A DNA stretch of 13,066 bases, from assembly GCA_024275095.1 (NCBI GenBank), contig JAJRZV010000136.1, positions 1 through 13,066 of the forward strand. The letters are read 5' to 3'. The position numbers and the translations under genes were made by a program. Position 1 is the first letter of the stretch; each line of letters starts with the position of its first letter. Origin of the DNA: a bacterium. Lineage in GTDB: Bacteria > JAJRZV01. The notes under the pieces were generated by a model that was not told the DNA's origin, searched no databases, and saw only the letters and a list, made by a program, of their open reading frames with translations. Below, one piece after another: positions 1 through 11,254 of the stretch.

Positions 1-312
1 CAAAGGAAATATCCAGAGGTCGTTAAATCCCTGGAGAAAGACCTGCCTCATCTTTTTACTTTCTTTGATGCCCCTCCTCCCGCAAGACGTTCCATGTATA
101 CCACAAACATCCTTGAAAGGGCCATTAAGGAGTTCAGAAGAAGAGTGAAAATTATTGATTCATTGCCTTCTCCTGATGCACTGTTAAAGCTTATTTTTCT
201 GCGTGTGATGGAGTTTAATTCCTCTGCCGCCACGAGAAAAGCTCGTGGCTTCACGGGCTGGAGCCTCTGGTCCGAAATGGAAGATGAATTAAAAATTACA
301 CACCTTTCTTGA
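1..312 (+). CDS. IS256-family (mutator-type) transposase, C-terminal fragment cut by the window edge
   Basis: The reading frame is open from base 1 to a TGA at 310-312, so the left edge of the window cuts the gene and only about the last 103 residues are visible. They carry the pattern of IS256-family DDE transposases: KYPEVVKSLEKD, then TFFDAPPPARRS, then the strongly conserved block TTNILERAIKEFRRR (about residues 34-48 of the fragment), followed by DSLPSPDALLKLIFL. In this family that block carries conserved acidic and basic residues at the C-terminal end of the catalytic domain. The protein would cut and join the ends of its own element. The first ATG in frame (base 94) is internal and is not the real start. 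Whether the full gene is intact cannot be judged, because the N-terminal three quarters lie outside the window. Confidence 0.9.
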   Translation, partial: QRKYPEVVKSLEKDLPHLFTFFDAPPPARRSMYTTNILERAIKEFRRRVKIIDSLPSPDALLKLIFLRVMEFNSSAATRKARGFTGWSLWSEMEDELKITHLS

Positions 313-1303: not shown

Positions 1304-2172
1304 CTGTTCCTCTCTTCACTCGAGCTGGCAGGTGGGATGTTTTTCCACCGGTCATGCATCCAGAGATACTGCTCGGGATAACGCCGAATATAAACCTCCA
1401 GCGCACGTGAATACAGAGAAAAAAACTCTTCAGGTGTGGCTGCGTCCTCAATAATTGACAGGTATTCCACGCAAAGACTACCTTTTTTGAAATTGGTAAA
1501 TGCAATGACAGCAGGTGCGCCAGTGCGTTTCATAAGTAGATACGGACTTCGGGGGAAGCTCGCTGGTTTATTAAAAAACTCCACAAACAGGGCTTTTTCG
1601 TAAGGAGTGTTGTGATCCGGTAGTATGGCCACATCACGTTTTGCACGGAGTATCCTCGACATCTGGTAGAAAGAACCGTGAAATGGCACCTGGTGCATCC
1701 GCATTTTACTTCTCAATTCGACAAGCAATTCTTCAACTTTGGAATTTCTCACGGGTCTGCCCACGGTGCACAACCCCCCGTAACGAATGGCATGTGCAAA
1801 TCCTCCAAGTTCCCAGTTGCCCACGTGTGCTGTCAGTATAATCACCCCTGAGCCTTTTCTACGAGCCTCTTCGTACAGATCTACACCCCTCAATCTCAAA
1901 TGTTCCTCAAACCATCCCTTACCTTTCCTCAGCACATGAGCTGTTAGCAAAGTCATACTCCCCAGATGAGCAAAATGCTTCAATGCAGTGAGAAGGCGCC
2001 ACCGTCTTGATCTTTGAGGAAATGCCTGTCGAAGATTTTTAAGAGCAATTAACCATCGCCCCGGGAGAAAAAAAGACGCAATAACACCAATTATTGCCCC
2101 ACCAAAAACTACCAGTTTTTCTGGTAAAAATCCTGCAAGGTTGATTGCGATTTTAAGAACGCGGGCTATCAT
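1300..2172 (-). CDS. LpxL/HtrB-family lipid A secondary acyltransferase
   Basis: The 290-residue length is close to LpxL/LpxM enzymes (about 300). It should transfer a fatty acyl chain to the lipid A precursor at the inner membrane. Visible family signs are a hydrophobic N-terminus (about 18-37), the HX4E catalytic motif HVGNWE at residues 116-121, GRPVRN at 138-143, ILPDHN at 183-188 and WMHDRWK at 271-277. LpxL enzymes usually have D-Q in the ILPDHN position; here it reads D-H. The N-terminal 20 bp overlap the end of lpxK. The ATG at 2172 has no clear ribosome binding site, so it may depend on coupling with upstream translation. The downstream ICMT-family gene starts inside its stop codon. 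I cannot tell from sequence whether it acts as LpxL, LpxM or LpxP, so no symbol is given. The family assignment is firm; the acyl chain and position are unknown. Confidence 0.9.
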   Translation of the reverse strand: MIARVLKIAINLAGFLPEKLVVFGGAIIGVIASFFLPGRWLIALKNLRQAFPQRSRRWRLLTALKHFAHLGSMTLLTAHVLRKGKGWFEEHLRLRGVDLYEEARRKGSGVIILTAHVGNWELGGFAHAIRYGGLCTVGRPVRNSKVEELLVELRSKMRMHQVPFHGSFYQMSRILRAKRDVAILPDHNTPYEKALFVEFFNKPASFPRSPYLLMKRTGAPAVIAFTNFKKGSLCVEYLSIIEDAATPEEFFSLYSRALEVYIRRYPEQYLWMHDRWKNIPPASSSEERNR

Positions 2173-3178
2173 CTTGAGTTATACGCTGTAAAAGTATTTT
2201 AAAAAACTCCTCTTCATCCGATATGCTCAATTGGATGTCAACAACTATCGTCTTTTCTTTAACGTCTCGCGGCCAGGTGTCTGAACCATATCGGAGCCGG
2301 TCTTTCAAGGTTATAACCACATACGAGGCATCACCCTGATTTAAAGCACGGACCATTTCGTTCAAATGTTTTTTTTGAAAAACTCCGTGGTCTCCAACAA
2401 TGATACTTTTTTTTATTTTAAAGTATTTTTCCATTCCCTTTATAAAACGGTAAGGATGTGCAATACCACAGGCTACCACCACATCTGTTCCCTGTATTTC
2501 GGAGGGTGATACGCGTTCGAGTCGCCAGTTATAAAACACCTGCTTCTCATCAACTAAAAAAATACTTGTGTGCGGAAAACGCTGTGAAATTAAAGCAGGA
2601 ATTTTTTCAAAATTTCTAAGCACCAGAATTTCATCTCCACGCAAAAAAGAAGGAATAACTCTGTGAAGACATCGAGGTTTCAAACGCTCAACATCTGAAT
2701 AATCTTTCCCATTCAATATTACAATGTCAGCGTTTCTGTATATGTAATATGAAATATAAGCATCATCCATAATAACAACCGTTTTTTCCAGAAAAGGAAC
2801 AGATTTTAATGCTGCTCTCTTAGAGGGTCCAGCCAGGACTTTAATATGGAGTGGAGCAAGGTAAAATGCCTGAAGTGCAGCTTCATCCGGGACAAACATT
2901 TTTGCCTCTTTTATATCTTCCACTGTAACAGTATTTTTAAGCCAGCTTTTGTACGAATGAGAAACCAGATATACATTCCAACCATGCTGATTAAAAAGTG
3001 AAGCCAGAAATACGCATAATGGACTTTTGCCCGCTCCGCCTGCAGAGAGCGAGCCCACTGAGATAACTGGAACAGGTGCTCTGTACACCTGTGAGGTTAG
3101 CCAATCAAAATATTTTGTCCTTGCCCGCACACACCAGGAGTAAAAAACGCTTGCCAAATATATACACTTCTCTCTCAC
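2153..3178 (-). CDS. lpxK: Tetraacyldisaccharide 4'-kinase (LpxK), divergent
   Basis: LpxK phosphorylates the 4' position of the tetraacylated disaccharide at the inner membrane to give lipid IVA, the acceptor for Kdo. The length (341 aa) fits the family. The Walker A region is clear: VGSLSAGGAGKSP at 41-53 (family form VGNLTVGGTGKTP). Other landmarks are recognisable but altered: SHSYKS at 73-78 for the usual SRGYGG; PDEAALQA at 97-104 for GDEPLLLA, keeping D98-E99; MDDAYIS at 137-143 for LDDGFQH, keeping both aspartates; IPSFLRGDE at 175-183 for LPAGPLREP; and GDHGVF at 262-267 for the usual DHHxF. The start is GTG at 3178, overlapping the waaA stop as GTGA, with GGAGAG as ribosome binding site. 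Position between waaA and the acyltransferase gene supports the call. The motif changes suggest either a fast-evolving LpxK or altered activity. Confidence 0.85.
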   Translation of the reverse strand: MREKCIYLASVFYSWCVRARTKYFDWLTSQVYRAPVPVISVGSLSAGGAGKSPLCVFLASLFNQHGWNVYLVSHSYKSWLKNTVTVEDIKEAKMFVPDEAALQAFYLAPLHIKVLAGPSKRAALKSVPFLEKTVVIMDDAYISYYIYRNADIVILNGKDYSDVERLKPRCLHRVIPSFLRGDEILVLRNFEKIPALISQRFPHTSIFLVDEKQVFYNWRLERVSPSEIQGTDVVVACGIAHPYRFIKGMEKYFKIKKSIIVGDHGVFQKKHLNEMVRALNQGDASYVVITLKDRLRYGSDTWPRDVKEKTIVVDIQLSISDEEEFFKILLQRITQDDSPRS

Positions 3179-5154: not shown

Positions 5155-7989
5155 TTAACGGCAGGTGTCATTATACACTGATACTTCTCCGGTGTTATCA
5201 GTTACAATGTAAACCCTCGCATAATTCATTGCCGGAAGTCGCAAGGTACTCAGATAATAAGCGCGCCTGATATGATTAGAAGGACTTATGGCAGAAAGGT
5301 TCAGTGTGCTCGGGTCAGTCGCATTAAGTACAATAACCCCATTGTACTCCGTCGCCTCAACGAGATAACGTGAAATGGAAAGCCCACTTCCACCTTCTAT
5401 GTAAAGCATATCCTTGATATTGTCTTTACTTCCTATGTCCCCTTCGAAAAGCTTTAGAAGATTGAGGTCAACATCATAGACTGCTGTCTTCAAATCCGTT
5501 CCCAAGGCGACGTAAAGATACTGGCCGTCAAAAGAGGCTGCCACAGCCGTTGGGTACATGCTTGCAGGAAGGTACGCCTTGGCAACCGGTGACACCGTTC
5601 CCGACGGATTTGCTCCGTCAAAGCGATAGATACTTGTATTGGATATCACATAAACAGAGTCGCCTCCTGAAGCTATAAAGGTGTTACTACTATCGATAAA
5701 GGCCCCGCTCTGCGCCACGAGAGACAACACATCTCCTGTGCGTTTGTAAACTTTAAGTTGAAAGGCTGTTCCCGAGGGTGCACACATCCACAAATAGTCA
5801 TCCGTGCCGGACGCATACGCGTCGAGGCATATCACATTACCTCCTCCTGATATAGTGGCAATACGTCGGGGGTTTTCCGGTTGTGTAATGGAATACACAT
5901 AGACGCTGTTTCCCCCTGCAAGCGCGTAGAGGTACTGGTTCTCCGTCGTACTCAAGCGGGTAATAGAAGCCTCTTCATCAATACGTGCAATAATGGGGGG
6001 GACATCATTGGCAGCATCTATGTTCCTGAAATCAAACACACTGATTCCACCATCTCCTTCCGCAGTCAGCAATATTGCAGATGGTTCGAAACCTTCGAGA
6101 TCTACAGGAACGTTGCTTAAATCAAGATGACTGTCAAATACAATTGAAGCAGGAGAGAGGTCATGAAGAGAAATACCTCTTCCCATACCTGCAGTGAGAA
6201 CAATTTGCCTGCCACCCTGATCCGCTCTTGCAATTCCATAAGCTCTTCCCACACCTGTAGATGGGTACACACAGGTGATAGCACCCGGCAATCCTTCTTT
6301 CAGTTGAGAACAAAAGTGAGCATTGGACTCCACACAACCAGTGCCCGGGAGCACGTATATCTCCTCCCAGCCGTGGTAATCCCAGGCAATGTAAGCAACA
6401 GTATCAGAGAAGGGATACGCATCCCGTACAATTTTTGGATAATAGTGATTGTAATCATACCCGCCGTCGTAGTTATCGTTAAATTCGCATCCAGTAACCG
6501 GAGCCGGTGCTGATGTGAGAGGATCCGCATAAATAGAATACACCCTCAGCCCGAATGGACAGTTTGTAGCAGTACAGGTGGGCCACTCCACCGCGTAAAG
6601 CAAACGCGAAGAGTCCATGATTTCCACCTTTTCGACAGGGTACGACTCCGGTCTGAAATTAAAGCTGGCCGTTCCTATCACGCTGATGCTCGGGGACACC
6701 CTCACACGAGCTACAAAAAGTTTATTGGTGACATCCTCGCCATAGTGCGAGACAAACACGTAGTGATCTCCACTCACTGCATCTTCCAGAACAGCGACGT
6801 CATTCAAAACGAGAGTTGTTCCAGCTCCCGTAAGCTGCCTTATGTTTATGATTTTGCACTGATTAAATCCCTGAAAGTTATCGGGATCGCTGACATCACA
6901 TGCGTATACCGTATCATAATCCTGCATGAGATACACCACCGTGACACCCGCCGGACTGTCCTCCACATCAAGTCTTCGAGTGTTCAGAGTGAGAGTATTT
7001 GAAGAAGGAATGAGCACGGGATTCGCCGGGTCACTGAGATCGTACATGCGTATTCCACCGTAAGCAATGAACAGAACAGGCCTTGTTCCATAAAAATGGA
7101 TCACCATATCTCCTGAAACAGCGGGAATCCGGGTAACAAACACCGGAGCATCCGGATCAGTCACGTCTATGATCCATGTGCCTCCACCTGAATGGTTGAC
7201 CACGGCATAGAGCCTACCGTTGTAAGAAAGAGGTAAAATATCCTGCGATGAACCACCTGCCATAAAAGAATTAAAATAATCGAACACGCATGAACAGATA
7301 ACCTGTTCACACTCGTCAGAGTCAAAATATCCACCATCATCAGCAGCACCTATCACAGGAGAATATATGCCGGAGGAAATGTAGCAGTAATCAAACGTGA
7401 ACTCCTGTTCCCCGGTTCCTGTGAGAGTGGTATTGTAGTCGTAAATGCCGTCTCCATTTGTGTCCAGCATAATGGGCCCAAAATCTGCATCATCGTATAC
7501 AACTGCACGAAATGTGTAGTTGCACGAACAGGAAGGCTGAGGATTAATCTGCCGTGAATCACACTGTACAAAAAGAGGAAGGTTTTTTCGTACATTAACA
7601 CTTGACCTTACAGAACACATCTGACCGTCAGACTTTAATGCTGTCACAACCACCGGATAATCATTCTCAAGTGCCCCCGGAGCAACATTGAACACGTGGG
7701 TAAAACTTTCGCTGAATGTACTACCCGCCTCGTCATCAGAAAATTCACGTGAATAAATCCAATCAAAGGAGTCTCCTGTTGCAACACCGATGAAAGAGTA
7801 GGGATTATCCTCTACCGTTACAGAGATATTCACCCTCATGGGTTCTCGACCCTGAAGAGGTGTAACGGAGAGAATTACATCCGGGCATTCGGAAGGCTTC
7901 GATTTGTCACACGAACAACCCGCATTTAAGTAAAGCGTTAATAAAAGAAATACTCCACCTGCCGCAAATAGTGATCGTTGTTTATTCAA
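5155..7989 (-). CDS. Large LVIVD-type beta-propeller lipoprotein
   Basis: From a TTG at 7989 this is a 944-residue secreted lipoprotein. The start region has Lys and Arg, a hydrophobic core and LNAGC, with the acylated cysteine at residue 25; serine at +2 would favour the outer membrane by the E. coli rule. A GTG at 8022 also opens the frame and would overlap the upstream gene by 8 bp, but it adds an acidic, signal-unlike leader and lacks a ribosome binding site, whereas TTG has AGGCGG just upstream. Residues 37-134 look PKD/Ig-like. Residues 135-234 are cysteine-rich, with a DTNGDGIYDY calcium-type loop near 176-185. From about 255 on there are propeller repeats of LVIVD type: WIIDVTDPDAPVFV (272-285), IRMYDLSDPANPVLI (313-327), VYACDVSDP (361-369) and VYVYSITQPENPRRI (696-710). 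No catalytic motif is seen; binding or scaffolding at the cell surface is inferred. It is probably co-transcribed with the large exported protein upstream. Confidence 0.8.
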   Translation of the reverse strand: MNKQRSLFAAGGVFLLLTLYLNAGCSCDKSKPSECPDVILSVTPLQGREPMRVNISVTVEDNPYSFIGVATGDSFDWIYSREFSDDEAGSTFSESFTHVFNVAPGALENDYPVVVTALKSDGQMCSVRSSVNVRKNLPLFVQCDSRQINPQPSCSCNYTFRAVVYDDADFGPIMLDTNGDGIYDYNTTLTGTGEQEFTFDYCYISSGIYSPVIGAADDGGYFDSDECEQVICSCVFDYFNSFMAGGSSQDILPLSYNGRLYAVVNHSGGGTWIIDVTDPDAPVFVTRIPAVSGDMVIHFYGTRPVLFIAYGGIRMYDLSDPANPVLIPSSNTLTLNTRRLDVEDSPAGVTVVYLMQDYDTVYACDVSDPDNFQGFNQCKIINIRQLTGAGTTLVLNDVAVLEDAVSGDHYVFVSHYGEDVTNKLFVARVRVSPSISVIGTASFNFRPESYPVEKVEIMDSSRLLYAVEWPTCTATNCPFGLRVYSIYADPLTSAPAPVTGCEFNDNYDGGYDYNHYYPKIVRDAYPFSDTVAYIAWDYHGWEEIYVLPGTGCVESNAHFCSQLKEGLPGAITCVYPSTGVGRAYGIARADQGGRQIVLTAGMGRGISLHDLSPASIVFDSHLDLSNVPVDLEGFEPSAILLTAEGDGGISVFDFRNIDAANDVPPIIARIDEEASITRLSTTENQYLYALAGGNSVYVYSITQPENPRRIATISGGGNVICLDAYASGTDDYLWMCAPSGTAFQLKVYKRTGDVLSLVAQSGAFIDSSNTFIASGGDSVYVISNTSIYRFDGANPSGTVSPVAKAYLPASMYPTAVAASFDGQYLYVALGTDLKTAVYDVDLNLLKLFEGDIGSKDNIKDMLYIEGGSGLSISRYLVEATEYNGVIVLNATDPSTLNLSAISPSNHIRRAYYLSTLRLPAMNYARVYIVTDNTGEVSVYNDTCR

Positions 7990-8014
7990 TAAGCCGCCTA
8001 TGTTCCAGGTTCCT

Positions 8015-11000
8015 TCATCCACGGCGCATTTTAAGATAGAAACCGCCCACGAAGACCAGCATCATCAGGAAAGTGACCATCATGCCGGTGTTACCTGTAG
8101 AATGTGTCATAACACATCCAAATGAAGAAAGAATCACGTCAGATTCACTTTCAGGAACACCGTCTGTTACCATGAAACGATATTTGATTTCACTGACGTT
8201 ACCAAGGTCATCGAATGCCCTGATGCGGAGCGTGTGAATTCCGAGATCAAGATTTTCCAGCACCACCTTTCTGTTGAGTGTGGGTTCCGTCCATCCTTTC
8301 TCATCAAGATTGTAACTGACAGTTACCTTGTCATCCGGAGCCTGCCAGTCATGAGCATAAATTTGAAATTCAAGTCGGCGCTCGTGTACCTCCGCCGGAA
8401 TATTGGGAATGGTGGCAAGGTGAGGCCCCACCCGGTCAACACGGAAGGTGTAAACTGCCGGTGTTGCATCAATAAATCCATCAGTATCCTTAGCCATCAC
8501 CTCCAGACGATGGGTGCCCTCGCGAATCACGGGGAAGGCTATGTTGTCAGATTTGAAGAAGGGTGACCACACCCCGTTATCTATCCGGTAGGAATACTGT
8601 ATTTCAGAAGCAGGGGTCTTGTCATCCACCGCGGTGAAATACGCACCATAGGTTACATCGTCAATAGGTTTAACCTCAGTAATAATTGTCTCCGGTATGG
8701 AAGAGGAAAGCTCGGAAGTCTCAGACGCCAGATCACCGGAAGGCGGGGCAAGGCCCAGGCTTCCAACATTCAAATCACTCAAACCCTCGAGAATATCGAA
8801 GACAAACTTCGCATCAATTCCGCTCTGCCAGAGATCTATGTACATGGCAAAGTAATTCCCTGCTGGGTCATCATCAGGGGTGGTGTCCCCTGCTGCTCCG
8901 ATGACAGGCGCGGTAATGCTCAATTGAGCAGGTTTGATGAGGGGAGAGATGTCCAGAGTAACCGACATGTTTGCACCCATGATGCCGCTCAGCAGTATGG
9001 GCAATATATCCCCCATAAACTTTTCATAGTCGGCAGAAGTGGGATAAACGGTATTGGTTGTCTCAACAATATTGAGCACCGTGGGATCCAATACAAATCC
9101 GGCAAAAATGCGGAATGCAGTGGTTGTATCACACACAGGCGGGTTCACCACACCGCAACGTTCTATATCCAGGCCCACGCCGATAAACAAATCGAGTTCC
9201 ATGCGAAAGATTTTCTGCCATCCCGAAGCCTGTGTATCCACCCAGAAATCCAGGTACATGTGAGGCACACGCATGATAAGGTCATTATACACGTAAAAAG
9301 TACCACCAGATGCTGTTGGTATGGAGGTTGCAGCCTCGGTGGTATACGCCCTGGTCTTATCTGCGTTCAGAGAGGCTTCAAACATCGGCACCACAGAAAT
9401 ACGCATGTCCCTATCGGGCTCTTTCTGGGGCAAATCGGGCAGGAAAAAGCCAAAAACATCTGTGTTAAGTACGGATGTTAAGGATTCTCCTATAGTGGGG
9501 GTATCACGATCAAGCGTGATGGACATAATTCCGTCTCTCAAAACTTCGTAAATAATTTCCGAAACCACCTGCTCGTGAAGGGCGACTCCTATATCATACC
9601 CAGCAGTTCCTACGGTGTTGCCGGTAAAAGGCAAGGTGTACCAATCCGTGGCAGTTGTGAAGGTGGTGGGCGGTAAAACAAGCACAGGTGCATAATCAGT
9701 TATCACTTCGATGTACGAATCTGAGCAGAAATTCGACGTGGCCACGCAGCCGATTGTCCCGGCTCCATTGTAGCACGGGTCACACACCCAGTTAGACGAA
9801 AGCCTGGGATCCACATTGAGCGCATTTAACCAGTAGGTATCTATATTAAGCTGTCCCAGGATCATGCCCCCGTTGTAACTCCCTCCCCACGGCCTGTAAC
9901 AGTACCACGCATTCGCAGCCACGTCGTAACCGATGTAGTCATAGCCGATGGGATGAGTGATTCCTCCCCTCCATACGGCAGAGACCGGGTCATAATAAGG
10001 ATTTTGAAGGGTACTGGTTAAATCAAACGCGCGGGTGCATCCAACGTACTGATCCAGCGCGCTGGAAATGGTGCTATCGAACCATGCACGAAATTCTGCA
10101 TCGAAAAACGGCACGACCTGCGTGAGCTGTTCTGTTGCATCGCAGTCACACCAGAGGTCTGAACACCCAACAGTGGTAGGGTCTGCATAGGTAGAGGATA
10201 TGGCATCGGTATAGTCCGGGTACCCGTCACCGTCACTGTCCGGGCACTGGTTGGTGCCTGACGACACCGTGCAATCCGCGCCGTCAAGGCATTCACAATT
10301 ATCCGGTACCTGCCAGTCATACTGAAACTGAGCCCCCACGTAAATATCCCCCATACAAATATTCAAATACTGGGTGTGGGGATCAGTGCTTTCCTTGTGC
10401 TGGAGCGCAGGTGCCAGTTCCACATCCAGGGAAACCCCACACGGTGGGTTGGGGCAGTACAGGGAAGTCCCGGCCTTGGCGTCAACGTATATATAATCGT
10501 CACACCGGGTAGATGCAGGACCGGCAAGCCAGTTGGGATCTGACGTAACAGGTGCAGTCCACGGACGGCCAAACCGCAGTTCCAACTCGATGTCTTTGAG
10601 GAAGATATGAAAATGAATGGCATCGTCTGTATCAGAGGTATCGTAAGGAAAACAGGTATCCGGCAGATCAGTCTCAGTTCCTTCGGTCGAGTACATCACT
10701 GCATTACTACCATTGGGGGGTGGCGTTGAATAATCATACTGAACAACCCATGGATCACTGTCAATGTTCTGCAACTGCACGGCAAAACAGACATTTCCAA
10801 GCAGAGGGATATCCATGCACTCATCCATTAACCAGTCGGGCTCCCATCCCTTGCAGTACATGTAGTCATCCTGGCCATCGTCACATCCCGTGGTTCCCAC
10901 GCTTGCGGCCGGAGAACCTGCCTCGCATGAGCCCGTAAAATTCGCGGAAGAACACACTGTATCACCATTATCATCCTGGTAACAGAGCTTGCCCTCCCAG

Positions 11001-11254
11001 CAAAACTCCACGGGAGTCGAGTAATTATCATCATCAGTGAAGCGCCGGAACAAAAGATCAAGGTAATTCTGGGTCAAGCTGTTATTGATGACGTTGGCAA
11101 GGATTTCATTGATAAACCCGAATCCTGTATCCGTAATGGCCACAACAATGTTATTGGTCATGGAACCTGCAAACGTGGATGCTCGGGCTTCTAACGAAAA
11201 CCCTGCGACAAAAATCATACTGATAATACTTATTAGAAATCCTTTTTTAATCAT
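8015..11254 (-). CDS. Giant exported protein with TULIP/BPI-like pattern, Ig-like repeats and a C-terminal anchor
   Basis: This is a 1079-residue protein with a signal peptide (residues 1-25, cleavage after ARA). ATG at 11254 is preferred because GGGGGG sits 7 bases upstream; the ATG at 11260 is only 1 base from it. After an amphipathic stretch (28-71) comes a cysteine-rich region with many Asp residues and a calcium-type loop DSDGDGYPDYTD (339-350). Residues 555-773 follow the pattern of the C-terminal half of BPI/TULIP lipid-binding proteins: a helix HEQVVSEIIYEVLRDG, then beta-rich text including MRVPHMYLDFWVD (661-673) and MELDLFIGVGLDI, then a helix-rich LPILLSGI segment. Two Ig-like repeats follow (about 865-940, 943-1031), each with the YRIDNG/YNLDEKG - EGTHRLEV/LGIHTLRI pattern. 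The end is C1047, a membrane segment (1056-1074) and KMRRG. I do not recognise a named family for the whole protein. The ligand is unknown; the TULIP relation is an inference from pattern. Confidence 0.8.
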   Translation of the reverse strand: MIKKGFLISIISMIFVAGFSLEARASTFAGSMTNNIVVAITDTGFGFINEILANVINNSLTQNYLDLLFRRFTDDDNYSTPVEFCWEGKLCYQDDNGDTVCSSANFTGSCEAGSPAASVGTTGCDDGQDDYMYCKGWEPDWLMDECMDIPLLGNVCFAVQLQNIDSDPWVVQYDYSTPPPNGSNAVMYSTEGTETDLPDTCFPYDTSDTDDAIHFHIFLKDIELELRFGRPWTAPVTSDPNWLAGPASTRCDDYIYVDAKAGTSLYCPNPPCGVSLDVELAPALQHKESTDPHTQYLNICMGDIYVGAQFQYDWQVPDNCECLDGADCTVSSGTNQCPDSDGDGYPDYTDAISSTYADPTTVGCSDLWCDCDATEQLTQVVPFFDAEFRAWFDSTISSALDQYVGCTRAFDLTSTLQNPYYDPVSAVWRGGITHPIGYDYIGYDVAANAWYCYRPWGGSYNGGMILGQLNIDTYWLNALNVDPRLSSNWVCDPCYNGAGTIGCVATSNFCSDSYIEVITDYAPVLVLPPTTFTTATDWYTLPFTGNTVGTAGYDIGVALHEQVVSEIIYEVLRDGIMSITLDRDTPTIGESLTSVLNTDVFGFFLPDLPQKEPDRDMRISVVPMFEASLNADKTRAYTTEAATSIPTASGGTFYVYNDLIMRVPHMYLDFWVDTQASGWQKIFRMELDLFIGVGLDIERCGVVNPPVCDTTTAFRIFAGFVLDPTVLNIVETTNTVYPTSADYEKFMGDILPILLSGIMGANMSVTLDISPLIKPAQLSITAPVIGAAGDTTPDDDPAGNYFAMYIDLWQSGIDAKFVFDILEGLSDLNVGSLGLAPPSGDLASETSELSSSIPETIITEVKPIDDVTYGAYFTAVDDKTPASEIQYSYRIDNGVWSPFFKSDNIAFPVIREGTHRLEVMAKDTDGFIDATPAVYTFRVDRVGPHLATIPNIPAEVHERRLEFQIYAHDWQAPDDKVTVSYNLDEKGWTEPTLNRKVVLENLDLGIHTLRIRAFDDLGNVSEIKYRFMVTDGVPESESDVILSSFGCVMTHSTGNTGMMVTFLMMLVFVGGFYLKMRRG

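What the first reader, a model, noticed from the sequence alone, without database searches (positions are those of the whole stretch)
8015..11254. Possible BPI/TULIP-like lipid-binding domain in a giant bacterial surface protein
Residues about 555-773 (numbered from the ATG at 11254) run helix, beta-rich stretch, helix in the order typical of the second half of BPI-type TULIP domains. There is a long amphipathic helix ending in LRDG, an LPDLPQKEP-like segment, alternating hydrophobic strands with MRVPHMYLDFWVD, and a final LPILLSGI helix. The N-terminal stretch 28-71 could be the start of the first half, with the Cys-rich, Asp-rich region as a large insertion. TULIP proteins bind lipids and BPI binds LPS; here the gene is two genes away from a lipid A operon. 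I recall similar patterns in uncharacterised deltaproteobacterial surface proteins, but cannot verify it here.
Basis: inference. Interest (0 to 1): 0.6.

Follow-up and report, generated by a model that had tools for sequence, protein, structure and literature searches.

The report
Bacterial surface protein resembling human BPI
A bacterium from a barely sampled lineage encodes a large, predicted surface-displayed protein whose core is a true relative of the human lipid- and endotoxin-binding proteins BPI and LBP; it belongs to an undescribed bacterial family that is probably used to hold or carry greasy molecules at the cell surface.

Summary
The gene (8015-11254/11260, minus strand; 1079-1081 aa) encodes a signal peptide, a BPI-like TULIP pseudo-dimer (N half enlarged by Cys/Asp-rich insertions, C half ~552-832), two Ig-like repeats and a Cys-TM-Arg C-terminal tag. 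A crude AlphaFold model of the window's C half (pLDDT 44, pTM 0.48) finds LBP, BPI and CETP first in the PDB (Foldseek E 3.8e-6 to 7e-3; VIA Z 9.1/7.4, next 4.2). Forty-one family proteins from 18 bacterial genomes give profiles hitting BPI in register at both halves (N 1.4e-7, C 1.4e-5); some relatives exceed Pfam's LBP_BPI_CETP_C cut-off, though the window protein does not. A profile without window-like sequences still hits the window at 1.9e-9. The genome has a myxosortase (beside a TULIP paralogue) and a type II secretin, so surface anchoring is likely; many loci pair the TULIP gene with beta-propeller lipoproteins. LPS binding is not supported: the domain is strongly acidic and the lipid A neighbourhood is not conserved. 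Likely function: surface-tethered binding or shuttling of hydrophobic ligands; the ligand is unknown. A new, BPI-like variant of bacterial TULIP proteins.

The parts
11180..11254 (-). Sec signal peptide MIKKGFLISIISMIFVAGFSLEARA, predicted cleavage after ARA
   Evidence: sequence, (start codon spacing); cleavage site by inspection
9626..11158 (-). N-terminal TULIP half (residues 35-545, numbered from ATG 11260) with large Cys/Asp-rich insertions (26 Cys); residues 35-71 are the first strand and helix
   Evidence: profile-profile alignment of 35-71 to the BPI-N-like domain of compact relatives, pairwise P 0.001-0.006; order of elements shared with relatives; compact relatives' N profile hits BPI-N at 1.4e-7
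10214..10240 (-). DSDGDGYPD, calcium-loop-like motif inside the N-half insertion
   Evidence: pattern match; function inferred
8765..9607 (-). C-terminal TULIP half, LBP_BPI_CETP_C-like (residues 552-832)
8153..8653 (-). two Ig-like (Y_Y_Y / OmpL47-type) repeats, residues about 870-1036
   Evidence: Pfam Y_Y_Y E 4e-4, NF047446 E 1.4e-6, both below cut-off
8018..8128 (-). C-terminal sorting tag: SSFGC (Cys1049), hydrophobic helix, KMRRG; MYXO-CTERM-like
   Evidence: sequence and its conservation in relatives; own-genome myxosortase and GspD
5155..8022 (-). partner gene: lipoprotein with PKD-like N part and beta-propeller (LVIVD / choice-of-anchor B-like) repeats; start more likely a TTG a few codons inside
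   Evidence: homologous genes beside relatives

Best explanation
The protein is a surface-displayed, two-domain BPI-like TULIP. It leaves the cytoplasm by Sec. Its Cys-TM-Arg tag holds it in the inner membrane until a myxosortase-type protease cuts the tag, and type II secretion then carries it to the outer face of the outer membrane, where the lipidated cysteine anchors it. Two Ig-like repeats hold the TULIP pseudo-dimer away from the membrane. The tube binds a hydrophobic ligand (lipid, lipopeptide, hydrocarbon or similar) from outside or from the outer leaflet, and presents it to, or receives it from, the co-encoded beta-propeller lipoprotein. Shown here (computationally): fold and homology of the C half, the homology of relatives' N half to BPI-N, the tag, the myxosortase and secretin genes, and the recurring propeller-lipoprotein neighbour. 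Inferred: actual lipidation, surface location, ligand binding, and hand-over to the partner.
For: Window C-half model: top five PDB hits are LBP, BPI, BPI, LBP, CETP; VIA Z 9.1 and 7.4 against 4.2 for the next unrelated chain. Family profiles hit BPI/LBP C halves (1.4e-5; 1.5e-5 including the window) and BPI/LBP N halves (1.4e-7), both in register. Pfam LBP_BPI_CETP_C above cut-off in two relatives scanned. Non-circular link from compact relatives to the window E 1.9e-9, shuffles none. Tag present in most window-like relatives and absent from the short secreted ones. Myxosortase core above curated cut-off, encoded just upstream of the C20 TULIP paralogue across a 340-base contig overlap. GspD E 5e-172. 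Myxosortase family in 13 of 18 TULIP genomes against 34 of 368 others, Fisher 1.4e-9, not corrected for relatedness. Propeller lipoproteins beside TULIP genes in eight genomes. Myxosortase pathway as described in PMC11980579.
Against: No ligand, lipidation or location data. The AlphaFold model is low confidence (pLDDT 43.7), and the full N+C model failed (pLDDT 29). The window's own tag does not reach the TIGR03382 model at E 10. Several family members have no propeller neighbour in the DNA read, so the partnership is not universal.
Confidence: 0.6

Rival explanations
1. It handles LPS or lipid A specifically (like BPI/LBP), as the nearby kdtA-lpxK-lpxL genes hint, for example moving or sensing endotoxin at the outer membrane.
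For: BPI and LBP bind LPS; lipid A genes lie two genes downstream on the same strand; one other TULIP gene (G341:C1) has LpxK directly downstream.
Against: Net charge of the window TULIP region is about -83 and most relatives are also acidic, unlike the cationic LPS-binding tip of BPI (established knowledge). Except for that one LpxK, none of the lipid A genes is found near other family loci; about one such adjacency is expected by chance among some 30 loci (rough estimate).
Confidence: 0.12
2. It is an adhesin or structural surface protein in which the TULIP fold is a scaffold and no longer carries a ligand.
For: Very large Cys-rich insertions in the N half, Ig repeats, surface tag and propeller-type partners are all common in adhesion proteins.
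Against: The C-half core (helix, FFLPDL segment, strands, LPILL helix) is conserved between compact secreted relatives and giant ones, which is easier to understand if the tube matters.
Confidence: 0.22
3. The resemblance to BPI is convergence of amphipathic helix/sheet patterns, not homology.
For: The window protein alone is below Pfam's cut-off (13 against 23 bits).
Against: Both halves hit BPI/LBP in order and register, with no other significant PDB match; two relatives exceed Pfam's cut-off; shuffle control empty.
Confidence: 0.04

Closest known systems
BPI / LBP / CETP (eukaryotic two-domain TULIP proteins; PDB 1BP1/1EWF, 4M4D, 2OBD)
   Same: two TULIP halves in the same order (compact relatives), detectable sequence homology in both halves, C half structure hit of the window itself
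   Different: bacterial; N half inflated by Cys/Asp-rich insertions in the window; followed by Ig repeats and a sorting tag; strongly acidic rather than cationic; window itself below Pfam's cut-off
Bacterial TULIPs DUF4403, YceB/DUF1439, DUF2140, DUF2993, P47/OrfX2 (Levine 2019, PMC6791001)
   Same: bacterial TULIP fold; DUF4403 is also a pseudo-dimer
   Different: no Pfam match to these families; a strongest published bacterial-eukaryotic link (DUF4403-N to BPI-N, 63% HHsearch probability) needed profile-profile methods, whereas plain profile-sequence search reaches BPI here; different architecture and anchoring
MYXO-CTERM / myxosortase surface proteins (for example TraA; PMC11980579)
   Same: signal peptide, C-terminal Cys + TM helix + basic tail, myxosortase and T2SS secretin in the genome
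   Different: the genome has no near relatives among those held (kinship 'same domain' only); window tag does not reach the NCBI MYXO-CTERM model; no TULIP cargo found in the literature searched

Membership tests
TULIP superfamily (BPI-like) | helix wrapped by a long curved beta-sheet, in BPI-C order | tested here: met
   C-half model: elements in BPI-C order; LBP/BPI/CETP are the top PDB hits; model confidence is low
TULIP superfamily (BPI-like) | two TULIP halves forming a pseudo-dimer | tested here: inconclusive
   Met for compact relatives (N and C profiles each hit BPI; N resembles C). For the window only residues 35-71 of the N half are aligned (P 0.001-0.006); full-length model failed
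Pfam PF02886 LBP_BPI_CETP_C | score above the gathering cut-off of 23 bits | tested here: not met
   Window 13 bits; relatives L086 34.9-38.6 and L104 36.1 bits do pass
BPI/LBP as LPS-binding proteins | cationic LPS-binding tip / LPS binding | tested here: inconclusive
   Strongly acidic TULIP region speaks against it; this is net charge only, binding itself not testable here
Lipid-binding/transfer protein | binds a hydrophobic ligand in the tube | not testable with these tools
   needs purified protein
MYXO-CTERM sorted protein | invariant Cys, TM helix, basic tail at C-terminus | tested here: met
   SSFGC...LMMLVFVGGFYLKMRRG; same in most window-like relatives
MYXO-CTERM sorted protein | NCBI tag model TIGR03382 above cut-off | tested here: not met
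   not reported for the window protein at E 10; paralogue C20 reaches it (16.9 against 15.85)
MYXO-CTERM sorted protein | myxosortase and type II secretion in the same genome | tested here: met
   Mrt_core NF040914 102-104 bits against 100; GspD 572 bits
DUF4403 / DUF1439 / DUF2140 / DUF2993 | Pfam match to these families | tested here: not met
   no match up to E 1 in the Pfam scans of the window and relatives

The most novel reading that the evidence does not exclude
An unrecognised, multi-lineage bacterial family of full BPI/LBP-type pseudo-dimers, displayed on the cell surface by myxosortase and working with beta-propeller lipoproteins, is the closest known prokaryotic relative of the animal BPI/LBP/CETP proteins, so that the two-domain lipid-transfer tube of animal innate immunity and lipoprotein metabolism has a bacterial sister (ancestor or transferred gene).
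Probability: 0.45. Interest if true: 0.78.

Novelty: new variant of a known kind. Interest (0 to 1): 0.6.

Why it matters
Bacterial TULIPs were known, but those described link to the eukaryotic ones only by weak profile-profile comparison (PMC6791001). Here ordinary profile searches connect a bacterial family to human BPI and mouse LBP over both halves, which makes the origin of the BPI pseudo-dimer testable with sequence data. It also suggests that some diderm bacteria display lipid-binding tubes on the outside of the cell, with a dedicated sorting protease and propeller lipoproteins, a possible route for taking up or moving hydrophobic compounds.

Tried and rejected
Full TULIP region (844 aa) in AlphaFold with the four permitted rows: pLDDT 29, useless. 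Genome-contig scan: three loci only. Viral collection and phage records: no relatives. Single-sequence phmmer against PDB: nothing; profiles were needed. Lipid A neighbourhood as functional evidence: rejected, not conserved. Literature searches for bacterial BPI-family proteins: none found beyond the 2017 and 2019 TULIP papers, but only open-licence papers are held. L031 (C86, same genome), first taken as a family member, is only a weak candidate. A regular expression for the N-terminal motif was badly registered and told nothing.

Full report
What is there. Residue numbers below count from ATG 11260.

Is it BPI-like? On its own the window protein gives only a weak Pfam LBP_BPI_CETP_C match (E 0.067, 13 bits, cut-off 23), which is however the only match to that family in the 2.45-Mb genome (E 0.009). 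To go further I collected relatives. A profile of six C halves (A1) found 18 of 386 genomes, with up to three proteins each; after fetching the loci I had 42 hits, one of them a duplicate of the same contig. They fall into giant tagged proteins like the window's, lipoproteins with a C-terminal TULIP (L086, L090, L094-L096), and short secreted proteins of about 510-540 aa, the size of BPI (L084, L087, L091, L100).

Non-circular link. A profile of nine compact relatives only, without any window-like sequence, hits the window at residues 553-632 with E 1.9e-9 (search size 5000), and 2000 shuffled versions of the window segment give nothing. The same compact set searched against all PDB sequences returns human BPI (E 1.4e-5) and mouse LBP (1.7e-5) over 178-206 of 221 positions, the next hit being 0.67. 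A profile of 18 members including the window returns BPI only (1.5e-5). Pfam LBP_BPI_CETP_C matches 8 of 18 members at E up to 1, the best at 1e-9, and L104, a further BPI-sized protein, at 6e-9. The N halves of the compact set hit BPI residues 1-217 at 1.4e-7 and LBP at 1.6e-5. So both halves match in order and register.

The window's own structure. The allowed alignment for AlphaFold was shallow (four rows). The whole TULIP region failed (pLDDT 29). The C half gave pLDDT 43.7, pTM 0.48, but with the elements in BPI-C order. Against the PDB its first five hits are LBP, BPI, BPI, LBP, CETP (E 3.8e-6 to 6.8e-3), and VIA-align gives Z 9.1 for LBP and 7.4 for BPI on their C halves, against 4.2 for the next chain. 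The model is too poor for any detail, but the ranking is clear and agrees with the sequence evidence.

The N half. In the window this half carries 26 cysteines and insertions. The rest of the N half is aligned with relatives but not proven to be TULIP in the window.

Display on the surface. The tag has the three parts of MYXO-CTERM (PMC11980579). It is below the NCBI tag model for the window, but paralogue C20 reaches it. The genome encodes a myxosortase-family protease above the curated cut-off and a GspD secretin. The protease gene lies directly upstream of the C20 TULIP paralogue: contig C119 ends in its N-terminus and overlaps contig C20 by 340 bases. Over the same 386 genomes the myxosortase family occurs in 13 of 18 TULIP genomes and 34 of 368 others (Fisher 1.4e-9; relatedness not corrected). 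Two of the exceptions, G117 and G255, have only short untagged TULIPs; the other three are 80-86% complete genomes.

Partners. The window TULIP gene is followed at once by a lipoprotein gene (5155-8022) with a PKD-like part and propeller repeats. Homologous PKD-propeller lipoproteins sit next to TULIP genes in G043 (two loci) and G048; a second type, BNR-like lipoproteins that are all related to each other, sits by TULIP genes in G000:C20, G048, G189, G306, G167, G150 and G289. Other family loci have no such neighbour, so the link is common but not general.

How it probably works. A surface-tethered TULIP tube on an Ig stalk, binding a hydrophobic ligand and cooperating with the propeller lipoprotein (inference; confidence 0.6 for surface display and hydrophobic binding together). 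LPS-specific binding is unlikely: net charge about -83 over the TULIP region and acidic relatives, and lipid A genes are not conserved neighbours; the single other LpxK neighbour, at G341:C1, is what chance would give by my rough estimate.

Known or new. TULIPs in bacteria are known (PMC6791001, PMC5507252). The held literature shows no bacterial family with this direct resemblance to BPI/LBP, but subscription papers and preprints are not held, and public Pfam may already contain unnamed bacterial members. Three relatives have named public records: two 'MAG: bacterium' and one Candidatus Dadabacteria MAG. I therefore call it a new variant of a known kind.

Noticed in passing
L101 (G000:C119) 1171-1833 and 1997-3103; overlap with L029 (G000:C20): Myxosortase-family protease gene directly upstream of a TULIP paralogue; contigs C119 and C20 overlap by 340 bases, so one gene cluster spans both.
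   Followed up: partly
L099 3971-5002 (G341:C1): LpxK gene immediately downstream of a 2127-aa giant TULIP protein; not seen at the related locus L083 in G069.
   Followed up: partly
L040 7945-9135, L077 10700-13113, L078 5707-8216, L079 2095-3534, L080 2276-3691, L081 6193-9767, L029 164-3192, L036 3500-4732: A family of BNR-like lipoproteins (often beginning with CGR after the signal) found again and again beside TULIP genes; mostly without a Pfam match above cut-off.
   Followed up: partly
L104 (G189:C42): BPI-sized protein (465 aa before the contig edge) with the strongest whole-genome LBP_BPI_CETP_C score of the survey (E 7.8e-10).
   Followed up: partly
L077 4123-10623 (G306): Two nearly identical tandem TULIP genes, a recent duplication.
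   Followed up: no
window 1-312: C-terminal end of a Mutator-family transposase at the window edge.
   Followed up: no
window 10214-10240: Single calcium-loop-like DSDGDGYPD motif in the Cys-rich insertion; with 28 cysteines before the tag cysteine, all but Cys1049 could pair.
   Followed up: no
L031 3396-6203 (G000:C86): A possible very divergent TULIP paralogue with the same kind of tag and a PKD-propeller lipoprotein upstream; evidence weak.
   Followed up: partly
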